A stretch of 28,896 nt of DNA, taken from positions 1 through 28,896 of IMG/VR virus record IMGVR_UViG_3300023442_000019. One strand, written 5' to 3'. The notes beneath the pieces are model-generated. The model made no database searches. It worked only from the letters and a program-made list of their open reading frames with translations, and had not been told where the DNA came from. This DNA comes from a virus. Positions 5,956 to 25,319 of this stretch are shown here, one piece after another (the stretch's first letter is position 1; the number at the start of each line of letters is the position of its first letter). The position numbers and the translations under genes are program-made.

Positions 5956-5960
5956 GCTCG

Positions 5961-6006
5961 GCAGGGTGGGTGCAAACCCCATCCTGTGCATCTTAAACAA
6001 AGGAGG
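5961..6006 (+). repeat. hairpin plus ribosome-site element, copy 1
   Basis: The stem GGGTGGG / CCCATCC (5964-5970 and 5978-5984) encloses the loop TGCAAAC. It is followed by GTGCATCTTAAACAAAGGAGG-like sequence ending in the ribosome site of the next gene. The stem extends by two more pairs outward. A close copy precedes the gene at 6408, with paired changes in the stem, which argues for a conserved RNA structure. Confidence 0.6.
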
Positions 6007-6016
6007 AATTTATGAA

Positions 6017-6346: not shown

Positions 6347-6353
6347 AAAGCGG

Positions 6354-6399
6354 GTGGGCAGGGTGCAAACCCCTGCCTGCGCATCCTAAACAAAGGAGG
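6354..6399 (+). repeat. hairpin plus ribosome-site element, copy 2
   Basis: The stem GGCAGGG / CCCTGCC (6357-6363 and 6371-6377) has the same TGCAAAC loop as copy 1 and the same downstream tract GCATCCTAAACAAAGGAGG. Compared with copy 1, one A-T pair is replaced by T-A and one C-G by G-U, so pairing is kept although bases differ. Confidence 0.6.
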
Positions 6400-6407
6400 T
6401 AGATAAA

Positions 6408-6572
6408 ATGCAAAAAATAGATGTTGTTCGGGAAGATTTGGTAAAGGCAAGAGAAGCGCTCTACAGGGCGTATCATAATACGCCCATAACGAATGATTTC
6501 ATGCACAAAATAATTTGGGAAGCCATCAAAAATGTTGAGATGGCTTTGCCCAGGGATGAGGAGGTGAAATAA
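6408..6572 (+). CDS. small helical protein
   Basis: This 54-residue protein is charged and wholly helical by appearance, with an ATG behind AGGAGGT and the hairpin element. It ends with a TAA two bases before the next ATG, and its own last codons (GAGGAGGTG) provide the ribosome site of that gene. Similar small helical proteins are common in early viral operons. No family is recognised. Confidence 0.65.
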   Translation: MQKIDVVREDLVKAREALYRAYHNTPITNDFMHKIIWEAIKNVEMALPRDEEVK

Positions 6573-11683: not shown

Positions 11684-14600
11684 TTACCAACTCCTCTGCC
11701 TGTCGAAAGCTTTTGTACTGTTCACCCAAAACCCTTCGCCCTGTCTTACCGCTATGCTTGCATTTCCTGTCAATCCACAGGTATATGTGTATTCTTGCTG
11801 TGTTTGTGGCTCAATATACACAATCTTATCAACATCACATACTCCATTACTGTTTATGCTTGTGTTTATCTGTTCAAGTGTCCTTGTGCCGTTATAGTCT
11901 AAGCCTAACAGATTCCAGCCTGTTTTAACAGTCCAGTTATAGTTTCCGTGTCCGTTGTCTCTTGTTACTGTATCGTTGTTTGCGAATTTGATATAAACTG
12001 CCTCTCCCTCTGGGATTGTCTGTGTTGCTCGGTAGCTCCAGCCTGCTTTGTATGTTTCCCATCTTTGAGTGCTGGAGTTCCAGCGTGCTATCCAAACGAC
12101 GTTAGAAGCATTCATGATATTTCTCATAGAGGTAAAGCTCTGGGTGGTGTTTATGAATACAGGTTGCCAGCCTGTGTTAAATACAGATTGATTGAATGAT
12201 GATGACGGAGGGATTACGTTTGTATAAACAACACCTGTTTGAGCGTATGCACCAGTTGTTGCATACGAACTTACATAATAAGTGTAGCTGTAATTCTGAA
12301 GATTGCTCATTGTTATTGACGCAGACGTGCCAATTTCATTTACCGTCATCGAAATATTATATGGTCCAGTGCTGTTAGTCCAGTGCAGTGTTGCGTTTTT
12401 AATCTCAGCTATTTCTGTTGAATTAACCTGTATTGTAAAATTATCTGAATATACTGTCTGATTAACAGGTGTTATAGGGTCATAAGCAATTCCGTACTCA
12501 AGTGATGTGAAATAAGAAGTCATACTTGAGAGACTACCAAGATATATTCTGTTTATTAAAGTTCCTGTATTTCCTTTACCACCCACTGCTAAAAATGGTT
12601 GTGGAGTTATATACTGTACAGGTGATGCGAATTCGTCATCACTATATGTTGTTGCCTTACAAAAGCCTATCCTGGGTCTCCCCCAATTCCACACACCAAC
12701 ACCATAATTTGTATCGTTCACAATAGCTGCAAAAACACCATCATACTTAACAAGACAATCATTGTTAGGTATTTCAGAGGTAATATCTATGAGCTCGCTT
12801 CCGTTATGAAATTTAAAAATTGAAAAAATCGGATTTATATATACCGCAGCATTCTCTTGATAAGCCGCACTATGATTGTCCTCTCCAAAATGAATGTAAG
12901 TATAATTTGCTATCAAAACAGGGTTTTCCCCATCAAATGTATAAGTTATTATTAATTGTAAGTCTGACTCAATACTATTGAGCCCATCAGGATTCCAAAA
13001 TGATAAATTTGTTATGAAAGTCGCAGAGTGATTTGTATAAGTATAATTAATAACTCTGCTTGGTCTTCCGTATTTACTTCCACTAAGTACAGGATTCCAT
13101 GACCAAGTCTCATAAAAATTAGTTTCATTATATCCTGAACTTGTCCAGCTTTCTGGCCAGTGATAAAAAGAGGATTGTATCTGCCGTCCAGCATCATAAT
13201 TATTAACAAGATTTGTATTATTATTTAATTCAGATAAATACGTTATAGCTCCACCATAAACAATGTCTATGCCTACTTTAATTTTTGAATTGTTAATATA
13301 TATTCTATCACTATCCCTGCCTATTACTCTTTCAGTGTATCCCAACGTTGTATCGTATACATATCCTGCTGGTGGTGTTCGGTTTACAATAGTAACGTAT
13401 GTCCCGTATGTTGTATTTTTATATCTTTCAACAGGATACAGATTAACGTTATTAACAGAGTATATATACCCTAAGTCCTCTCCTAATGAAAAACCAGCAG
13501 GGCATGTATCACTTATTGTATCCATGTAAATATTTGTAGTAGCATTTTGGCAGCGTATAAGATGTACTCTATTTGTTCCCCCGGAAGCAAGTGTACGAAA
13601 TTCGGGTTCTATGGTATTAAACCCGCCCAAGCCCTTTGTTTTTGATGAAACATATCTTCTTTCACCACCTATTCCAGCATCCCCTAAAAGATACACTAAA
13701 TTTTCCATCTGCTGGCTCAGATGTAAGCCTAAGTCAATTTCCACGTAATATGTGGGGGTTGTATAATTATTACCATTCGTGGTATTAGTTCCTACAACAT
13801 AATAATAATATTTTCCATCATATAAATCCGTAAGTGTGATTTCCCAGTCTGTTGTTGATACTTGATTCATCGGATATTGCTTAATACCCCACCATCTCGT
13901 ATCCCAATATAACGTAACATTGTCATATATTTCTGTAGTAGTAACTTTTATTGTGGTGCTTCTTGTGTTCCATGGCTCTTGCTGATTTAGTTTGGTAGGT
14001 GGCACAAATTTTATTTTTGGTGTGGTATTGTGTATATATATAGTTACATTGTATGTTGGTAGATAGTTACGGATTGTTACATTATTTTGAATTACAGAAG
14101 ACGGTACTGTAAAGTATACTGAACCAAAAACATCAGATGCATTGTAAGTTATATTAACTGGATTATCCGAAGATGTGTTCCAGTAGTTGCTCCATGTATT
14201 GTTATTAACAGTCGCCCTGATTTGTTCTGCTCTATCGTAATATATCTTCAATCTATCACTTTCATTTAATGTGCGATTGTATATGAGAACATTATCAATC
14301 GTGATATTCATATAACCTTCATAACCAGTGTAACTTCTTGCACCAAAACGCAGTGGTGTTGTAGTGGACTGCATTGTTCCTGAAAAAGAAGTATTAGTAT
14401 ATGTTAAGCTATACTGTGTACCATCTATACGTATGTATAATCTATTATCGCCTGTTTTTGAATTATCATACCCCACTTCTATCCAATGATATGACCCTTC
14501 TGGAAACACAGCATCTGTATCACCATACAGATAGTTTACATTGCTGGAGAATGTAACAACTCTTATAACTCCAGGGGAGGGCATTTCTATTCCAAACTGT

Positions 14601-15424
14601 CTTCCAGTTTCACTATCCTTCCCAAGCAAGCTTCCTGTTTTTGAGATGTTGTTTATTTTAACAAGCATTATAATAGTCCAGTTCCCACTTCCAAAATCAT
14701 ATGCTGTGTTAGAGGGAATCTCAGCGTATGTTCCTGTTGTTCCGCTGTAATGTACTGCATTGTTGTACATTCCTTCTACATGTTCATACGTACCGTACAA
14801 CGTGCCATTGTTTGCAGTAGAGGAATAGTCAATAAGCGTGTTCCCTGTTGCTTCGTCATGCCTCCACCAGCCCACAAGTCCGTTTGTAGGTATGTCGTAT
14901 GGGTCTGCTCTCGTTGATTTTGGGGTGATGTTAACCCACATATCAAGTATATCCTGTCCGTTATATGCGGCATCAAGTTGTACTGTACAATTTCCTGTAC
15001 ATGTAGCATTGATATAATGTGGGTCATAATACACCCTAAAATTTCTTACAAAAGATAAATCTCCTCCATTAGTATAACCCCATAATTCAATTCTGTCAGT
15101 GGTATTGAGTGTTATACTAATATCCTCTGATACTTGAACAAAGTAGTTACTTGTAGTACTGTGTTCTAAGCTAACCGCTACTCCGTTTTTTCTCACCTCT
15201 GTCCCTATTCCGTAGAGAGAACTACTTGATGTAGTGTTCATTTCCCATTTTACTCTTATTGTGCCTGTGATGTTTTCAGTCGGTGTTATCTCAAGTAGTT
15301 TTACATAAGTTGTGGAGGTTGTACTTGCTAAAGAGTCATTGCTCCATCTGAGGGTATTACTTGCCAAAACTTGTAAATTTGCAGAGGCTGGTGTTATTAC
15401 TGCTAAAAATAGTATTAACAGCAA
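11684..15424 (-). CDS. large secreted LamG-domain protein (adhesin or tail fibre)
   Basis: This protein of about 1,246 residues starts with a secretion signal: a hydrophobic run LLILFLAVITPASA. Mature sequence is extremely rich in Asn, Thr, Ser and Tyr, with many N-x-S/T sites. A LamG/concanavalin-like domain starts near residue 182 (GLVGWW) and ends near 400. Beta-rich surface-protein repeats and a C-terminal FQSF/GWNLLGL-type module follow. The listed start is a TTG without ribosome site; a CTG four codons upstream (giving RSK before the hydrophobic run) is possible. A strong ribosome site and ATG stand slightly upstream in another frame (see findings). The product is probably displayed on the host surface or used as receptor-binding fibre. 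Confidence 0.75.
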   Translation of the reverse strand: MLLILFLAVITPASANLQVLASNTLRWSNDSLASTTSTTYVKLLEITPTENITGTIRVKWEMNTTSSSSLYGIGTEVRKNGVAVSLEHSTTSNYFVQVSEDISITLNTTDRIELWGYTNGGDLSFVRNFRVYYDPHYINATCTGNCTVQLDAAYNGQDILDMWVNITPKSTRADPYDIPTNGLVGWWRHDEATGNTLIDYSSTANNGTLYGTYEHVEGMYNNAVHYSGTTGTYAEIPSNTAYDFGSGNWTIIMLVKINNISKTGSLLGKDSETGRQFGIEMPSPGVIRVVTFSSNVNYLYGDTDAVFPEGSYHWIEVGYDNSKTGDNRLYIRIDGTQYSLTYTNTSFSGTMQSTTTPLRFGARSYTGYEGYMNITIDNVLIYNRTLNESDRLKIYYDRAEQIRATVNNNTWSNYWNTSSDNPVNITYNASDVFGSVYFTVPSSVIQNNVTIRNYLPTYNVTIYIHNTTPKIKFVPPTKLNQQEPWNTRSTTIKVTTTEIYDNVTLYWDTRWWGIKQYPMNQVSTTDWEITLTDLYDGKYYYYVVGTNTTNGNNYTTPTYYVEIDLGLHLSQQMENLVYLLGDAGIGGERRYVSSKTKGLGGFNTIEPEFRTLASGGTNRVHLIRCQNATTNIYMDTISDTCPAGFSLGEDLGYIYSVNNVNLYPVERYKNTTYGTYVTIVNRTPPAGYVYDTTLGYTERVIGRDSDRIYINNSKIKVGIDIVYGGAITYLSELNNNTNLVNNYDAGRQIQSSFYHWPESWTSSGYNETNFYETWSWNPVLSGSKYGRPSRVINYTYTNHSATFITNLSFWNPDGLNSIESDLQLIITYTFDGENPVLIANYTYIHFGEDNHSAAYQENAAVYINPIFSIFKFHNGSELIDITSEIPNNDCLVKYDGVFAAIVNDTNYGVGVWNWGRPRIGFCKATTYSDDEFASPVQYITPQPFLAVGGKGNTGTLINRIYLGSLSSMTSYFTSLEYGIAYDPITPVNQTVYSDNFTIQVNSTEIAEIKNATLHWTNSTGPYNISMTVNEIGTSASITMSNLQNYSYTYYVSSYATTGAYAQTGVVYTNVIPPSSSFNQSVFNTGWQPVFINTTQSFTSMRNIMNASNVVWIARWNSSTQRWETYKAGWSYRATQTIPEGEAVYIKFANNDTVTRDNGHGNYNWTVKTGWNLLGLDYNGTRTLEQINTSINSNGVCDVDKIVYIEPQTQQEYTYTCGLTGNASIAVRQGEGFWVNSTKAFDRQRSW

Positions 15425-20471: not shown

Positions 20472-20490
20472 GATGAAAACAACATCAAAA

Positions 20491-20502
20491 GACTTTTTAA
20501 CG
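20491..20502 (-). promoter_or_regulatory. late-type TATA promoter, copy 5
   Basis: Minus strand GTTAAAAAGTC ends 19 bases before the protease ATG at 20471. It overlaps the last codon and stop of the CysH-like gene, so the CRISPR-associated cassette ends exactly at this promoter. Confidence 0.75.
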
Positions 20503-21186
20503 TTTATATTTCCACATCAGGAATCTATCAACATTCTCTGAGCCGAATTTATCGAATTCAGGGTCAAAAAGGGTGGTGAATCTGGTACGTTCATAACCAA
20601 GAAGCTGAGCATACTTATCATAATAACTGAGGTATGGCACGTTATTTGATACGATATAAGCCCACACATCACGCCATGTAAAATCTCTTAGAGGGAAGAT
20701 GTTCGTTATGCCTCTATCATGCTCATAATAATTATTTGTCCTGAATCTGCGTTTTACTGATTCCTCTGCTCTCAGCCCTATAAATGCTGAATCATAACCC
20801 TGTTTTATCAGTCTCGGAATTTCTATGCCTATAAAATGCCTCCCCACAACGTTTTTTGCATGTCTGCCTTCTTTTTTGTAGAGTGATGAGGTAAGTACAA
20901 GAAAGTCTTTAGCTCCGCATTTTTTTGCTATCCTCAGGATTTCTCTATGCAGTTCTCGTGGAATAAAATAAGGACCATAATCCCAATGAAGAACGGTTAC
21001 GTTGCTGTTTTGCTGTAAAACTAAATGCATCATTGTTGTGGAATCCTTACCACCACTGAAAGCTATGTAGGGTTTTTTGAAATCTGAGAGGGCTTGCGTT
21101 ATCACTCTTTTAGCTGTCTTAAGTTTTTGTTGGAATTCGTATGTTTGCGACCAATGTTTGAAGTACTCAAGCCATTCAAGTTGCAT
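20497..21186 (-). CDS. cysH: CysH-like PP-loop protein of type IV-B cassette
   Basis: This 229-residue protein belongs to the PAPS reductase/adenine nucleotide alpha-hydrolase group. The PP-loop SGGKDS is at residues 44-49, within a strand-loop-helix, and RAEES is near residue 140. Its C-terminus lacks the ECGLH catalytic motif and iron-sulfur cysteines of true sulfonucleotide reductases, and only one Cys is present in the whole protein. CysH-like proteins without an assimilatory role are the known companions of type IV-B CRISPR loci. It overlaps the glycosyltransferase gene by 11 bases. The reaction is unknown; nucleotide binding or AMP transfer is likely from the PP-loop. Confidence 0.82.
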   Translation of the reverse strand: MQLEWLEYFKHWSQTYEFQQKLKTAKRVITQALSDFKKPYIAFSGGKDSTTMMHLVLQQNSNVTVLHWDYGPYFIPRELHREILRIAKKCGAKDFLVLTSSLYKKEGRHAKNVVGRHFIGIEIPRLIKQGYDSAFIGLRAEESVKRRFRTNNYYEHDRGITNIFPLRDFTWRDVWAYIVSNNVPYLSYYDKYAQLLGYERTRFTTLFDPEFDKFGSENVDRFLMWKYKR

Positions 21187-21913
21187 GACAATTTACCCTT
21201 AGATTATCCTTGTGTAATTTATGAGCGTTTCTACTAAGTTTAAACCCAAGCCATGTTCCTGTTCTTTCGACAAGCCCGTCATATACTCTATCTAATTTGC
21301 TTCGTCTTATATGATTTGCACCAGACCTCTCTCTAATTAAAGCCCGTAAACCACCATCGCTGCGGATTTTGTGTTTCGCAAAGACAAAACCACATCTGTA
21401 ATTTTGATACCCTGCAAGATATGAACGTATAAAAAGCTCCACATCATCAAGATAGTCTTCTCCATGACCGCCAAAACTTTCATACGTCTCTTTTTTAACC
21501 ATGATTCCTCCACCTGTAAATCCAAGTGCTATTTTCTTGAAATCATATTTTGATGGCTTATTATGTGCAAATTGGATCAATCCCGTCTCAACATGCTGTG
21601 ATTTTGTAAATTTAATGATTTCGTGTATTTTATTCAATGATTGATTAAAAACAACATCATCATCTGTAAAAACAATATACTCATTACTCTTAATATTATC
21701 TTCAACATTTTTGAAAAGTTCCTTACGTTTTATAGCTGGATAACCAGGTGTGCTCTCAAAATAGTAGTCTATATTTGTACTATTAATCTGTTTTGATGTC
21801 CCTTGAGCTAAAATAGCAATTGTTACTTCAATCCCAGAATTTAATAAACTTTCAACACACTCCTTAAGTAAAGCTGGTCGATTATAACTTACTATCAAAA
21901 ACCAAACTGTCAT
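21176..21913 (-). CDS. GT-A family glycosyltransferase
   Basis: This 245-residue protein has a GT-A-like Rossmann start (FLIVSYNRPALLKECVESLL). It has a TDDD metal/sugar-nucleotide motif at residues 83-86, and GGGIMVKKETYESFGGHGEDYLDDVELFIR, where the acidic ED/DD residues are likely catalytic. It resembles family-2-type and phage DNA-modification-associated transferases. The ATG at 21913 has GGGAGGTAG upstream; a GTG at 21934 is an alternative. It lies between csf3 and the CysH-like gene, an addition I do not know from standard type IV-B loci. The acceptor could be protein, glycan or modified DNA base. Confidence 0.8.
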   Translation of the reverse strand: MTVWFLIVSYNRPALLKECVESLLNSGIEVTIAILAQGTSKQINSTNIDYYFESTPGYPAIKRKELFKNVEDNIKSNEYIVFTDDDVVFNQSLNKIHEIIKFTKSQHVETGLIQFAHNKPSKYDFKKIALGFTGGGIMVKKETYESFGGHGEDYLDDVELFIRSYLAGYQNYRCGFVFAKHKIRSDGGLRALIRERSGANHIRRSKLDRVYDGLVERTGTWLGFKLSRNAHKLHKDNLRVNCHAT

Positions 21914-22613
21914 GATACCTACTACCTCCCGCACTCAAATCAAGCTTTACAGAAGCCCCAGGAGTGGCACATAAGTCAGTATTTTCTGAAGCCCAATATG
22001 GTGCTTTGTATGCAAGTCTGGCAATATCGCTTGCTGATCTTAGAAACTTGATAGGTATGGCTCTCATTGCTTTCCCGTCTTTTATGATGCTGTAATCCTT
22101 ATCTATCTCTTTTATCTCAAATGATTTTACAAAACCATAGCCTATTGCTGTTTTTTTTCCAAGTGCTGGTAGTCCCTGAAGTAGTGTTTTTATCTCATCT
22201 GCATTCCCGCAGGCATAAAACGTAACTTTCCGTGCTGGAATATAAACAAGCGAGATCATGTAGTCCTTGAAGAGCCCCCGTGATTTGTCTATCCTCTTTT
22301 TCTTTATTTTTCTAAGATTGAGATAACGCTCACAGAAGCGCTTGTAGATTGTAGTTGTGTAGGCGTCTGAGGTATCAAAAAAGGAGATAGAGGCGTGGTA
22401 GATTGAGTGATGCTTTTTCAGAGGGAGAGGGGTGTCTCCGCAGCTTTTCACAACTTTTTTAGAGGGCAAACAGCGATAGCCGAGAGGGTCTTTTCTGCGA
22501 AGGGTTAGATGAGCGAGCAGCGCATCAAAATGGATGAAAGGGTAGGTAAGACAGATAGGGGTGCGCATAAAAAATGTTATTTTTAATGGTGTGTATGCGC
22601 TCTCTGCATGCAC
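21882..22613 (-). CDS. csf3: Csf3 (Cas5-like subunit, type IV-B)
   Basis: This 243-residue RAMP-fold protein fits Csf3. The early segment reads TPICLTYPFIHFDALLAHLTLRR, the standard start of the family. The Gly-rich loop GKKTAIGYGFVKSFEI near residue 155 is the RAMP signature. In type IV complexes it caps the 5' end of the guide RNA. The GTG start is chosen because GGAGG at the end of csf2 lies nine bases upstream and no ATG gives the same frame without losing the start. It overlaps the glycosyltransferase gene. Confidence 0.85.
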   Translation of the reverse strand: MHAESAYTPLKITFFMRTPICLTYPFIHFDALLAHLTLRRKDPLGYRCLPSKKVVKSCGDTPLPLKKHHSIYHASISFFDTSDAYTTTIYKRFCERYLNLRKIKKKRIDKSRGLFKDYMISLVYIPARKVTFYACGNADEIKTLLQGLPALGKKTAIGYGFVKSFEIKEIDKDYSIIKDGKAMRAIPIKFLRSASDIARLAYKAPYWASENTDLCATPGASVKLDLSAGGSRYHDSLVFDSKL

Positions 22614-22618
22614 AGCAT

Positions 22619-23443
22619 TCAGCCTCCAAGTTGGTTTAGCAGATCAATAATTTCTTTTTTGTGGTCCTGCAGAAAGTTGAGATAGCGTTCTGAGGTTTCG
22701 CTGAGGTTATAAGTTATTTTAAGCTCCCCAAGACCTATTGCGGATTTGCCACCAATATATGGTTTGGTTTTCCACAGCTCTATCACTCGTGCAAGACAGG
22801 ATTTGTCTATCTCATCAGGGTCTTCAAGCTTGAATTCGTGATAAAACTCAGTACCTGCTGCAAATACTTCATGCTCTATCAGCATCTGAACCGCCTGCTC
22901 CCCTTTTTCCCTCTCTGCCTTCAGGTCATCCTTGCGTGTTTGGTAGTGATGTGACAACAGTTCGTAAATGCTGTGTGCAGGATGTACTGGCAAATAGGCT
23001 ATAAGCTCTGTGCAGATTGGCAGCCCCTGCCCAACTTTTAGCTTACTCTCTATTATCTGGTTGCCGATACTGAAACCGAACAGCCGAACAGGTGGAAGCG
23101 TCTCGACTATACTGCGTTTTAGGGCTAAGTCTATAACACCACTGCTTTTCTCATCAACTGTTTCAAGCACTCCGCCTGTGAACAACGCATGATATAGTTT
23201 CTGTCCTCTTGGTGTGGATACGTCAAGCTCGTATCCTACCTGCTCAAGCATATCAGACATTATCAATCTGCGTAAAACACCACGTATGGCATTTCCTGAG
23301 ATTATTGGGATTTCCTCTGCTCCATTATCTGTTATGAATTTCTGACGGTTCAATAATACTACTGACCCTGTTTTCTCATTCCCTCCATGAAATATCGGAG
23401 AGAGGGCTTTTAATGTTCCACTTACGGTTAATACTCCATACAT
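22619..23443 (-). CDS. csf2: Csf2 (Cas7-like backbone, type IV-B)
   Basis: This 274-residue RAMP protein has the typical Csf2 beginning: SGTLKALSPIFHGGNEKTGS (residues 8-27) and ISGNAIRGVLRR (48-59). The C-terminal YIGGKSAIGLGELKITY carries the Gly-rich loop. Many copies of Csf2 form the helical filament that holds guide RNA in type IV particles. The ATG lies after a GAGGTGATT ribosome site and 3 bases downstream of the cas11-like stop. No catalytic residues are expected, as Cas7-like subunits of type IV-B are not known to cut DNA. Confidence 0.88.
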   Translation of the reverse strand: MYGVLTVSGTLKALSPIFHGGNEKTGSVVLLNRQKFITDNGAEEIPIISGNAIRGVLRRLIMSDMLEQVGYELDVSTPRGQKLYHALFTGGVLETVDEKSSGVIDLALKRSIVETLPPVRLFGFSIGNQIIESKLKVGQGLPICTELIAYLPVHPAHSIYELLSHHYQTRKDDLKAEREKGEQAVQMLIEHEVFAAGTEFYHEFKLEDPDEIDKSCLARVIELWKTKPYIGGKSAIGLGELKITYNLSETSERYLNFLQDHKKEIIDLLNQLGG

Positions 23444-23446
23444 AAT

Positions 23447-23812
23447 TCAATCACCTCTCTTTTCTTTTAATTCTTCTTTCAATTCTTTAGCTCGTTTTGC
23501 TGCTTTGAGCGTGAGGAGTTTTGGCATCCGCCTCATAAGTGCGAGTGCGTGTTTTTCGTTTTCTCTGAGAAACTCTATGGTTTCAAGAGGGAGCGGTGGG
23601 GCTTGCAAGCTAAGGGTATTGCACAGTTTTTGAATTACTGAGGGTATATCACGCTCATATCTTGCAAACTCTAATCTATGCTCAAAAATATCGTATGCGG
23701 TCTTGCTTCTTGCTATCTGTTTCCAATTTACTGCTTTGTAAATATACGCAAGAAGCTCTACCCATGCAGACTCTATCTTATCATCTAATTTCTCATCATA
23801 TTGCAAATACAA
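23447..23812 (-). CDS. cas11: Cas11-like small subunit (type IV-B)
   Basis: This 121-residue, entirely helical and charged protein sits between csf1 and csf2, exactly where type IV-B loci encode the Cas11 small subunit that lines the RNP filament. It starts with TTG after GGAGGTGA, overlapping the csf1 end by 17 bases, which indicates translational coupling. The sequence itself is not distinctive; identification is from helix content, size and order. Confidence 0.72.
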   Translation of the reverse strand: MYLQYDEKLDDKIESAWVELLAYIYKAVNWKQIARSKTAYDIFEHRLEFARYERDIPSVIQKLCNTLSLQAPPLPLETIEFLRENEKHALALMRRMPKLLTLKAAKRAKELKEELKEKRGD

Positions 23813-24377
23813 TCACCTCCCACATTGGGTTTTTGTTATATTTTATAATCTGCTCACATAACTGCCTGTGTTCCCATTTGTTTGTATGCGGAGTGGTCAT
23901 AAGTTCGGTTTTTGAGAATTTTAGCTCTCGTGCCTGTTTTACTATCGTGATGAGTTTCTCAAGCATTGTGCGGTCTATGAGGATGAGTTTGTCCTCAAAA
24001 GCTATGAAATATCTATTTATGCTGTATGATGGGCGTGTTATCAGGTGCAAAAAACCCTGTTTCTTACCTGATTTTGTGAGATATATTGCAAATGGTGGGG
24101 CTGGTGGATTTAGGAGGGTAGGCAGGATTTCTGTGCGGTCCAGGAATCTAACACCGCTCTCAGAGGCTACCCATGATTTACGTCTGTAATCCTGAGACCT
24201 GCATAATGTGTAGCAATACTCACAAATACAGCTTCCTTCCTGAAGCAAGCTCCATGAGGTAAAATTGGATGAGAAATCTATGTCATTCCCAGCATCAGTT
24301 TTTGTACCACAGACTATACAAATCCCTCTCTGCTCGCCACAGAGGGGCTTGAAGAACTCGGAAATTCTTGTAATCAT
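23796..24377 (-). CDS. csf1: Csf1 (Cas8-like, four-Cys zinc finger)
   Basis: This 193-residue protein shows the Csf1 layout: CxxC at residues 20 and 23, an F-x3-F plus W-containing stretch, then C-x2-C at 52 and 55, followed by a short beta/alpha domain. Csf1 is the signature subunit of type IV systems and stands for the large subunit. Additional cysteines at 13, 50 and 59 are present. The ATG has no ribosome site, so the operon probably starts with a leaderless mRNA. It heads the set csf1-cas11-csf2-csf3. Confidence 0.82.
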   Translation of the reverse strand: MITRISEFFKPLCGEQRGICIVCGTKTDAGNDIDFSSNFTSWSLLQEGSCICEYCYTLCRSQDYRRKSWVASESGVRFLDRTEILPTLLNPPAPPFAIYLTKSGKKQGFLHLITRPSYSINRYFIAFEDKLILIDRTMLEKLITIVKQARELKFSKTELMTTPHTNKWEHRQLCEQIIKYNKNPMWEVIVFAI

Positions 24378-24472: not shown

Positions 24473-24619
24473 ATGCGTATAAAAACTGGTTTCTCGCTGT
24501 CGGAAGAGGTAATGGATCGGCTGGAGAAAGAAAGAGGGTTAATCCCACGCTCAACTTTTGTGGAGCACATTCTGAGAAAAGAGTTTGGAATGTTACCAGA
24601 AACAGAAACAGGGGAGTGA
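24473..24619 (+). CDS. ribbon-helix-helix regulator
   Basis: This 48-residue protein is read opposite to csf1. It starts with a strand (MRIKTGFSLSEE), followed by helix A (EEVMDRLEKERG), a turn (LIPRST) and helix B (STFVEHILRKEFG), the classic ribbon-helix-helix pattern of CopG/MetJ-type repressors. The strand residues at positions 2-8 would contact DNA. It lies between csf1 and the MuF gene. It is likely to repress its own promoter and possibly the csf operon. Confidence 0.75.
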   Translation: MRIKTGFSLSEEVMDRLEKERGLIPRSTFVEHILRKEFGMLPETETGE

Positions 24620-24638: not shown

Positions 24639-25319
24639 TCATTGGATGATCGCTACCACTGTACATCTGCAATTCGGGTGAGCTGGTGGTGGGTCATCGG
24701 TTATATTAAATGTTTTATTGTGTCTGGGACCGCAGATAGGGCAGGTGCGTTCATCCATGGCCGCTAACCATTTCCATTTTTTTATGCCTGCTTTTTTGTA
24801 TCTATCAACTGCTGCGGTGTTGAATATTCTAATGGTTTCAGTCCTTGCTATCTTCTCTGCTCTATTACGCATAGAATCTGTAATCTTTTTAATTCTCTCA
24901 GCAAGCTGTCTTGGAGATTCGCCTTTCAGTAACCCGTCTCTTAGCTGAAACGCTACCTGTTTTTTCATGTCCTCACTCAAACCTTTAACTAGGTCTAACT
25001 GAATATTTTTTAGCTGATTGAGGGTTTCCTCATCCACAACACCTAACAAAGAAGGGATTACGATTTCAAGCCCAGCTTTTTTGAGCTGTGCAATTGCAAA
25101 ATCAGAACCACGTTTCCATAACAAAAATGTGAATCTGTCTATTAAATCATCAGCATTTAGATGCCTGTCGATTATTTTTTTTACCTCATCAAGCACGCTT
25201 TCATCGATTACAGGGCTGCTTACAATAATGTCCTCTATCTCTCTTCTTGCCTCAGAGGGTAGTTTTCGCAGCGCTCTTGCGTATTCTTCTCGTGCTACGG
25301 TTGTTCTTGTGGGATCCAC
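24639..25319 (-). CDS. MuF-like minor head protein
   Basis: This 226-residue protein ends with the MuF signature. Residues about 160-219 contain ARTETIRIFNTAAVDRYKK, then CPICGPRHNKTF and HPNCRC (214-219), forming a likely metal-binding fold. MuF proteins are packaged in the head next to the portal. The N-terminal half is helical. The GTG start follows GGTGGTGGAG, 9 bases after the portal stop. It is the last virion gene before the CRISPR-associated cassette. Confidence 0.85.
   Translation of the reverse strand: MDPTRTTVAREEYARALRKLPSEARREIEDIIVSSPVIDESVLDEVKKIIDRHLNADDLIDRFTFLLWKRGSDFAIAQLKKAGLEIVIPSLLGVVDEETLNQLKNIQLDLVKGLSEDMKKQVAFQLRDGLLKGESPRQLAERIKKITDSMRNRAEKIARTETIRIFNTAAVDRYKKAGIKKWKWLAAMDERTCPICGPRHNKTFNITDDPPPAHPNCRCTVVAIIQ

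What the first reader, a model, noticed from the sequence alone, without database searches (positions are those of the whole stretch)
20497..24377. Type IV-B CRISPR-Cas effector cassette inside the head-gene block of an archaeal tailed virus
Seen in the sequence: one operon encodes a four-Cys Csf1-like protein, a small helical protein, two RAMP proteins with Csf2 and Csf3 signatures, and a CysH-like PP-loop protein. Known: this is the gene set and order of type IV-B, which usually lies on plasmids and lacks arrays, cas6, cas1/2 and a nuclease. Inferred: the virus carries a guide-RNA or RNA-binding filament as cargo, perhaps against rival elements or host defence. Its position between the MuF gene and the protease promoter, replacing nothing essential, suggests cassette insertion as a moron.
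Basis: partly seen in the sequence, partly recalled or inferred. Interest (0 to 1): 0.95.

Follow-up and report, generated by a model that had tools for sequence, protein, structure and literature searches.

The report
Type IV-B CRISPR cassette in virus
A virus of (probably) heat-loving archaea carries, beside its head genes, a complete set of CRISPR-related proteins of the puzzling array-less type IV-B plus a sugar-transferring enzyme, at a spot where related viruses carry toxin-like protein tails or nothing; this hints that such systems modify molecules rather than cut them.

Summary
On the minus strand at 20497-24377, csf1, cas11, csf2, csf3 and a CysH-like PP-loop gene are present; the four Csf/Cas11 proteins match type IV CRISPR profiles at E 1e-27 to 1e-69. 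No CRISPR array, cas6, cas1/2 or DinG was found. The moron reading is supported by comparison: the cassette lies between the MuF stop codon and the protease promoter, where relatives have nothing (L007/L008) or a MuF C-terminal extension, mostly with a small partner gene (L005, L006, L124-L128, L130, L131). Virus-borne type IV-B is not new: archaeal tailed "Fuxivirus" has one (PMC10848311). New here are the site, the glycosyltransferase (homolog in the same slot of L041) and a survey: 66 of 81 IMG/VR loci carry csf1-3+cysH, and 29 have terminase or MuF genes nearby. The csf3-cysH slot repeatedly holds glycosyltransferase-like, methylase, SPOUT, ParB or Cas6 genes. Best mechanism (unproven, about 0.38): a nuclease-free RNA-bound Csf filament working with a PP-loop enzyme and a transferase to modify its target. 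Rivals: guide-RNA sponge; unrelated glycosyltransferase cargo.

The parts
23796..24377 (-). csf1 (type IV large-subunit-like protein, four-Cys zinc site), 193 aa; first gene of the operon, no SD in front
   Evidence: PADLOC Csf1_0_IV 2.4e-38; C20/C23/C52/C55 invariant in 6 sequences; upstream sequence
23447..23812 (-). cas11 (small subunit), 121 aa
   Evidence: PADLOC Cas11_0_IV 3.3e-27; overlaps csf1 by 17 nt, SD GGGAGG
22619..23443 (-). csf2 (Cas7-like backbone RAMP), 274 aa
   Evidence: PADLOC Csf2_0_IV 7.5e-69, Pfam RAMPs 7.6e-6; PDB Cas7c 11fs 3.3e-17 and type IV Csf2 7jhy 1.6e-12; 58% identical to Csf2 of a Thermococcus nautili plasmid
21882..22613 (-). csf3 (Cas5-like RAMP), 243 aa
   Evidence: PADLOC Csf3_0_IV 1.3e-61; TIGR03116 1.4e-22
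   Evidence: PF00535 1.9e-4, just below cut-off; homolog at the same operon position in L041, 36% identity, E 2.5e-39, which passes the PF00535 cut-off; AF2 model unusable, pLDDT 31
20497..21186 (-). CysH-like PP-loop protein of type IV-B (CasCysH), 229 aa, SGGKDS motif, no catalytic C-terminal Cys
   Evidence: PAPS_reduct 6e-18; 80-sequence alignment: S44, G46, K47, S49 in 80/80, C-terminal Cys motif absent in all but one by pattern; AF2 pLDDT 94.8; best folds CysH, CysD, FAD synthase, TtuA, LarE
24473..24619 (+). 48-aa ORF, ribbon-helix-helix-like by eye; divergent from csf1, possible regulator of the cassette
   Evidence: no Pfam match, no homolog in fetched loci: weak
24639..25319 (-). MuF-like minor head protein without C-terminal extension; border of the cargo site
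   Evidence: Phage_Mu_F 1.8e-23; 43-55% identical relatives
20486..20508 (-). TATA-like promoter motif (TTAAAAAGTCTT) in front of the protease gene; other border of the cargo site
   Evidence: equivalent TTTTAAAGTCT-type motif before the protease in L006, L007, L008, L124
19032..20471 (-). protein at the prohead-protease position, with ChaB domain; neighbour of the cassette
   Evidence: ChaB 1.5e-10; protease role inferred from position and from the relative L008 with Peptidase_S78

Best explanation
It is a type IV-B CRISPR-derived effector cassette (identity about 0.97), carried as cargo by a tailed virus, most likely of an archaeon, in a variable site between MuF and the protease promoter (about 0.85). 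Inferred mechanism: Csf2 and Cas11 build a filament on a short RNA, capped by Csf3 and Csf1; the complex has no nuclease, so it acts by binding. CasCysH keeps an intact ATP-pyrophosphatase loop but not the reductase cysteine, so it should activate (adenylate) a substrate rather than reduce sulfate. The glycosyltransferase translated between csf3 and cysH would supply the transferred group or a later step. Together they would covalently modify a nucleic acid (or a partner) bound by the complex, to protect the virus from host defence or to disable rival elements. Shown: gene content, operon structure, motifs, site, recurrence of modifying enzymes in this slot across the family. Inferred: the RNP, the chemistry, the target and the benefit. 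The confidence given is for the mechanism.
For: Profiles for all parts. PP-loop invariant and reductase Cys absent in 80 family members; confident model whose best folds are nucleotide-activating PP-loop enzymes, including CysD, FAD synthase and the tRNA thiolase TtuA. GT homologs in the same slot of two non-sister Csf2 lineages. The csf3-cysH slot or the cassette edge holds other modifying enzymes elsewhere: (D/S)PPW or N6/N4-type methylases (L014, L045-L047, L066, L072; L018 downstream of cysH), SPOUT/SpoU methylase-like (L002, L042, L074, L079), a second GT-like family (L014, L063), ParB-like genes in many loci, often beside a second PAPS-reductase-like gene. Cargo site: three states in relatives. 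A published review independently proposed CasCysH-mediated nucleic-acid modification (PMC8175902).
Against: 37 of 59 csf3-cysH gene pairs are adjacent with no slot gene, so no accessory enzyme is essential. Slot genes differ, and some are not modifying enzymes (Cas6 in L059/L098, HTH and sigma-like genes), which may just mean a tolerant insertion point. GT membership rests on a weak Pfam match and one homolog; its acceptor is unknown. The virus has a 1246-aa putative surface protein with 54 N-glycosylation sequons (shuffle mean 23, max 34), an equally good GT customer. The solved IV-B complex bound heterogeneous RNA without known target (PMC7937560).
Confidence: 0.38

Rival explanations
1. Guide-RNA sponge / anti-defence: the Csf filament soaks up host crRNAs or other small guide RNAs, shielding the virus; CasCysH and GT are regulatory or accessory.
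For: No array in the window or near the relatives and no cas6 or nuclease found in the window; IV-B complex loads non-CRISPR RNAs of uniform length (PMC7937560); proposed in PMC8175902.
Against: Does not explain the conserved intact PP-loop of CasCysH or modifying enzymes in the slot.
Confidence: 0.25
2. RNA-guided interference: the complex borrows processed crRNAs of the host and silences host or competing-virus genes without cutting, as type IV-A does.
For: Csf3 (Cas5-like) and Csf1 kept; IV-A represses without cleavage (PMC11656645); some IV-B loci carry Cas6; Fuxivirus IV-B has a mini-array (PMC10848311).
Against: No array found; co-expressed crRNAs were not enriched in the solved complex (PMC7937560).
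Confidence: 0.15
3. The GT is unrelated cargo that merely sits in the operon: it decorates the virion adhesin or the host surface, and the Csf part works without it (compatible with either rival above).
For: 1246-aa window protein with 54 sequons; most IV-B cassettes lack a GT.
Against: Reading frames overlap csf3 and cysH; same position in L041 from another Csf2 lineage; relatives have other nucleic-acid-type enzymes there.
Confidence: 0.3
4. Inert hitchhiker: a plasmid-derived cassette that landed in a tolerant site and gives no benefit.
For: Nearest relative is on a Thermococcus plasmid.
Against: All six frames intact and SGGKDS and the Csf1 cysteines kept; recurrence in dozens of virus contigs.
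Confidence: 0.05

Closest known systems
Type IV-B CRISPR-Cas of 'Fuxivirus' (proposed Fuxiviridae, Bathyarchaeia tailed virus; PMC10848311)
   Same: csf1-cas11-csf2-csf3-cysH in an archaeal tailed virus of similar size; no adaptation module
   Different: cysH is adjacent to csf3 (no GT); has a two-repeat mini-array and a Cas4 homolog; cas genes are genes 1-5 while TerL and portal are genes 27-28, so not described as between MuF and protease
Type IV-B of Mycobacterium sp. JS623 megaplasmid (cryo-EM, PMC7937560)
   Same: Csf1, Cas11, Csf2, Csf3 composition, no array or nuclease; a solved type IV Csf2 (7jhy) is matched at 1.6e-12
   Different: bacterial, plasmid-borne, distant sequence; no GT described
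Type IV-B cassette of Thermococcus nautili plasmid THER333_p (L003)
   Same: closest sequences: Csf2 58%, Csf1 49%, Csf3 44%, CysH 42%; sister in the Csf2 tree
   Different: csf3 and cysH directly adjacent, no GT; plasmid context
MuF polymorphic-toxin modules of phages (recalled family; function not tested)
   Same: relatives of this virus carry C-terminal extensions of MuF plus a small partner gene at the place where the cassette lies
   Different: the window has no extension; its cargo is the cas operon

Membership tests
CRISPR-Cas type IV-B | csf2 (type IV Cas7) | tested here: met
   Csf2_0_IV 7.5e-69; groups with Csf2 of cysH-bearing type IV loci of plasmids and viruses
CRISPR-Cas type IV-B | csf1 with four-Cys zinc site | tested here: met
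   2.4e-38; four Cys invariant
CRISPR-Cas type IV-B | csf3 (Cas5-like) and cas11 | tested here: met
   1.3e-61 and 3.3e-27
CRISPR-Cas type IV-B | cysH-like gene with PP-motif and no catalytic Cys | tested here: met
CRISPR-Cas type IV-B | no CRISPR array | tested here: met
   no CRISPR-like repeats in the window; the contig may be incomplete
CRISPR-Cas type IV-B | no cas6, cas1/2 or nuclease; no dinG (dinG would be IV-A) | tested here: inconclusive
   none among the window ORFs examined, but not every small ORF was profiled and the genome may be partial
CRISPR-Cas type IV-B | forms an RNA-bound Csf2/Cas11 filament | not testable with these tools
   known from PMC7937560 only
Glycosyltransferase family 2 | GT-A domain with acidic metal motif | tested here: inconclusive
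   window protein below the Pfam cut-off (21.8 of 23.3 bits), homolog L041 above it (26.1); no usable model
PAPS reductase (true CysH) | catalytic C-terminal cysteine | tested here: not met
   absent in the window protein and, by motif pattern, in 79 of 80 family members
'Fuxiviridae' (proposed) | shared genome-wide similarity and gene order with Fuxivirus | not tested
   no Fuxivirus match came up in the phage collection; described gene order differs
Viral moron / cargo | same site empty or differently filled in relatives | tested here: met
   L007/L008 empty; L005, L006, L124-L128, L130, L131 MuF extensions; exact junction not definable

The most novel reading that the evidence does not exclude
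Type IV-B systems are RNA-loaded complexes that direct covalent modification of nucleic acids: CasCysH activates the site or substrate and a swappable enzyme encoded between csf3 and cysH (glycosyltransferase here; methylases or SPOUT enzymes elsewhere) sets the chemistry. Viruses would use them to mark their own genome or to alter host or rival RNA or DNA.
Probability: 0.18. Interest if true: 0.93.

Novelty: new variant of a known kind. Interest (0 to 1): 0.6.

Why it matters
What type IV-B CRISPR systems do is an open question. Finding them in dozens of virus contigs, often near packaging genes and with exchangeable modifying enzymes between csf3 and cysH, gives a concrete and testable handle: purify the operon products and look for modified nucleotides. 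The comparison of the MuF-protease site also shows that these tailed viruses use one place either for toxin-like MuF extensions or for a CRISPR-derived cassette, which suggests a role in conflict.

Tried and rejected
CRISPR array or mini-array in the window: none. Rfam: nothing above chance. GT relatives: single-sequence scan of viral contigs and tblastn in phages found none; the two-sequence alignment scan returned only L041's contig again. GT structure: single-sequence AF2 failed and its profile found no PDB match. GT versus the GT-like protein of L014: no sequence similarity, so they are separate families; L014's is related to one in L063. RHH-like ORF: no Pfam match and no homolog. TerL in 398 Thermoproteota genomes: only distant matches, so no host assigned. 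Family PDLC01724 on genomes also rings on other RAMPs, so weak hits were ignored. Cas11 against PDB by sequence: no match. Papers PMC7038947 and PMC8658065, likely relevant, are not held.
Full report
Observation. The window is an IMG/VR record of 28,896 bases. On the minus strand, 24377 down to 20497, six ORFs follow each other with overlaps or gaps of a few bases. Profile searches identify csf1, cas11, csf2 and csf3 with E-values from 3e-27 to 7.5e-69 against PADLOC type IV models; NCBIfam type IV models for Csf1, Csf2 and Csf3 match below their curated cut-offs, as expected for distant members. The last gene is a PAPS-reductase-family PP-loop protein (Pfam 6e-18). This is far beyond chance and matches the coordinates given. 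Its homolog in L041, at the same operon position, is 36% identical (E 2.5e-39) and passes the cut-off.

Operon and control. csf1 has no Shine-Dalgarno sequence, while cas11, csf2, csf3 and the GT (from the ATG at 21913) do, which fits one transcript starting at csf1. A 48-aa ORF on the other strand (24473-24619) starts 95 bp from csf1 and looks like a ribbon-helix-helix protein by eye; no profile or homolog supports this. The structural genes use a TATA-like motif TTTAAAAAGTCTT; six sites within two mismatches were found where 2.3 were expected, and 4 of 100 shuffles reached six, so the count alone is weak. All six are on one strand and five lie just upstream of gene starts, including the protease gene. 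None lies at csf1.

Site. Relatives of TerL, portal and MuF were sought in viral contigs. In L007/L008 the MuF gene is followed after 36 bp by the protease, with a TTTTAAAGTCT-type motif between them and no cargo. In L005, L006, L124/L125 and L131 MuF has a C-terminal extension with an HEYGHH motif; in L126-L128 and L130 it has a different extension; in each of these except L005, whose contig ends there, a small ORF of about 84-120 codons follows. L006 shows a frame break within MuF. The window has a short MuF and the cas cassette. The place between MuF and the protease promoter is therefore a variable cargo site. The protease of the window does not align with those of L006-L008 by BLAST, so the junction cannot be drawn to the base. 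That the MuF extensions are toxins with immunity partners is recalled from the MuF toxin literature, not tested.

Family context. The nearest Csf proteins are on a Thermococcus nautili plasmid (Csf2 58%) and in a Desulfurococcales MAG; the quick Csf2 tree groups them with the window (SH-aLRT 89 and 94; the careful tree was not finished). A scan with a diverse Csf2 alignment found 115 IMG/VR stretches encoding relatives, of which 80 loci were kept. With iterated profiles, 66 of 81 virus-contig loci (window included, repeat fetches removed) carry csf1, csf2, csf3 and cysH, and 59 all five genes; 29 have TerL or MuF within the fetched flanks. Some of these contigs are near-identical, and IMG/VR may include plasmids, so 29 is the safer count for virus-borne cassettes. 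No convincing CRISPR array was seen near them. Published precedent: Fuxivirus (PMC10848311) and reviews mentioning phages and prophages (PMC11656645); Skermania phage SPI1 (L004) was also found here to hold a matching set.

The csf3-cysH slot. Among 59 loci with csf3 followed by cysH, 37 have them adjacent and 22 have an interval over 150 bp. The intervals hold a GT (window, L041), a second GT-like protein and a (D/S)PPW methylase (L014), ParB-like, methylase and an unknown 267-aa protein (L045-L047, one lineage; ParB-like and the 267-aa family also in L063), methylases (L066, L072), SPOUT-like proteins (L002, L042), Cas6 (L059, L098), and HTH or sigma-like genes in one clade (L089, L100, L102, L108, L110). 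They are scattered over the tree, so gains look repeated. Many of these are enzymes acting on nucleic acids, but no formal enrichment test against flanking genes was made.

CasCysH. In 80 family members S, G, K and S of the SGGKDS loop are invariant, as are E142 and R146, and the catalytic C-terminal cysteine of real PAPS reductases is missing, in line with PMC8175902. The model from 34 sequences is confident (pLDDT 94.8); the nearest solved folds are CysH, the ATP sulfurylase subunit CysD, FAD synthase, TtuA and LarE (TM about 0.5-0.65). This favours an enzyme that activates a substrate with ATP.

Mechanism. The Csf proteins very likely form the RNA-bound filament seen in PMC7937560 (by homology). 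I think the likeliest role is that the complex, CasCysH and the GT act together on a bound nucleic acid or partner. This step is inference. A sponge for guide RNAs, RNA-guided silencing with borrowed crRNAs, or a GT that instead decorates the virion are live rivals; the last is helped by a 1246-aa window protein with 54 N-glycosylation sequons, more than in any of 300 shuffles.

Verdict. A genuine type IV-B cassette in a tailed virus, a known kind; new in its site, its glycosyltransferase, and the pattern of exchangeable enzymes in the csf3-cysH slot.

Noticed in passing
window 5960-6015 and 6350-6410 (+): Two copies of a 39-nt element (90% identical) form hairpins whose stems differ by apparently compensating changes, followed by C(T/C)TAAACAAAGGAGG-like sequence and a start codon: a possible cis-regulatory leader RNA in the early-gene block. 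No Rfam match.
   Followed up: partly
L005 3252-4763, L006 7474-8959, L124 6941-8848, L131 6941-8828: MuF proteins with a C-terminal extension carrying an HEYGHH (zincin-like) motif, followed (where the contig continues) by a conserved partner ORF of about 110 codons; candidate MuF toxin and immunity pair.
   Followed up: partly
L126 6998-8457, L127 906-2370, L128 3119-4545, L130 6992-8444: A second, different MuF extension with its own 84-98-codon partner ORF at the same site.
   Followed up: partly
L015, L017, L018, L045-L047, L058, L063, L064, L071, L081, L093, L096: Type IV-B cassettes often sit next to a ParB-N-like gene, mostly beside a second PAPS-reductase-like gene (DUF3440 in L015 and L017): an IbrA/IbrB-like pair recurring with type IV-B.
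   Followed up: partly
L059 7569-8267, L098 7566-8264, L075 8611-9387: Cas6-like genes in or beside type IV-B cassettes without a detectable array in the fetched flanks.
   Followed up: partly
L045 7105-7908, L063 8125-8958, L018 7852-8691: A family of about 270-aa proteins with no Pfam match (tested for L045 and L063), found near ParB-like and PAPS-reductase-like genes of type IV-B loci.
   Followed up: no
window 11684-15424 (-): 1246-aa putative surface protein with 54 N-glycosylation sequons (shuffle mean 23, max 34) and no profile match.
   Followed up: partly
L020: A contig binned as a Calditrichia MAG carries an integrase, a complete type IV-B cassette and a terminase-like gene (weak profile match): probably another virus or provirus.
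   Followed up: no
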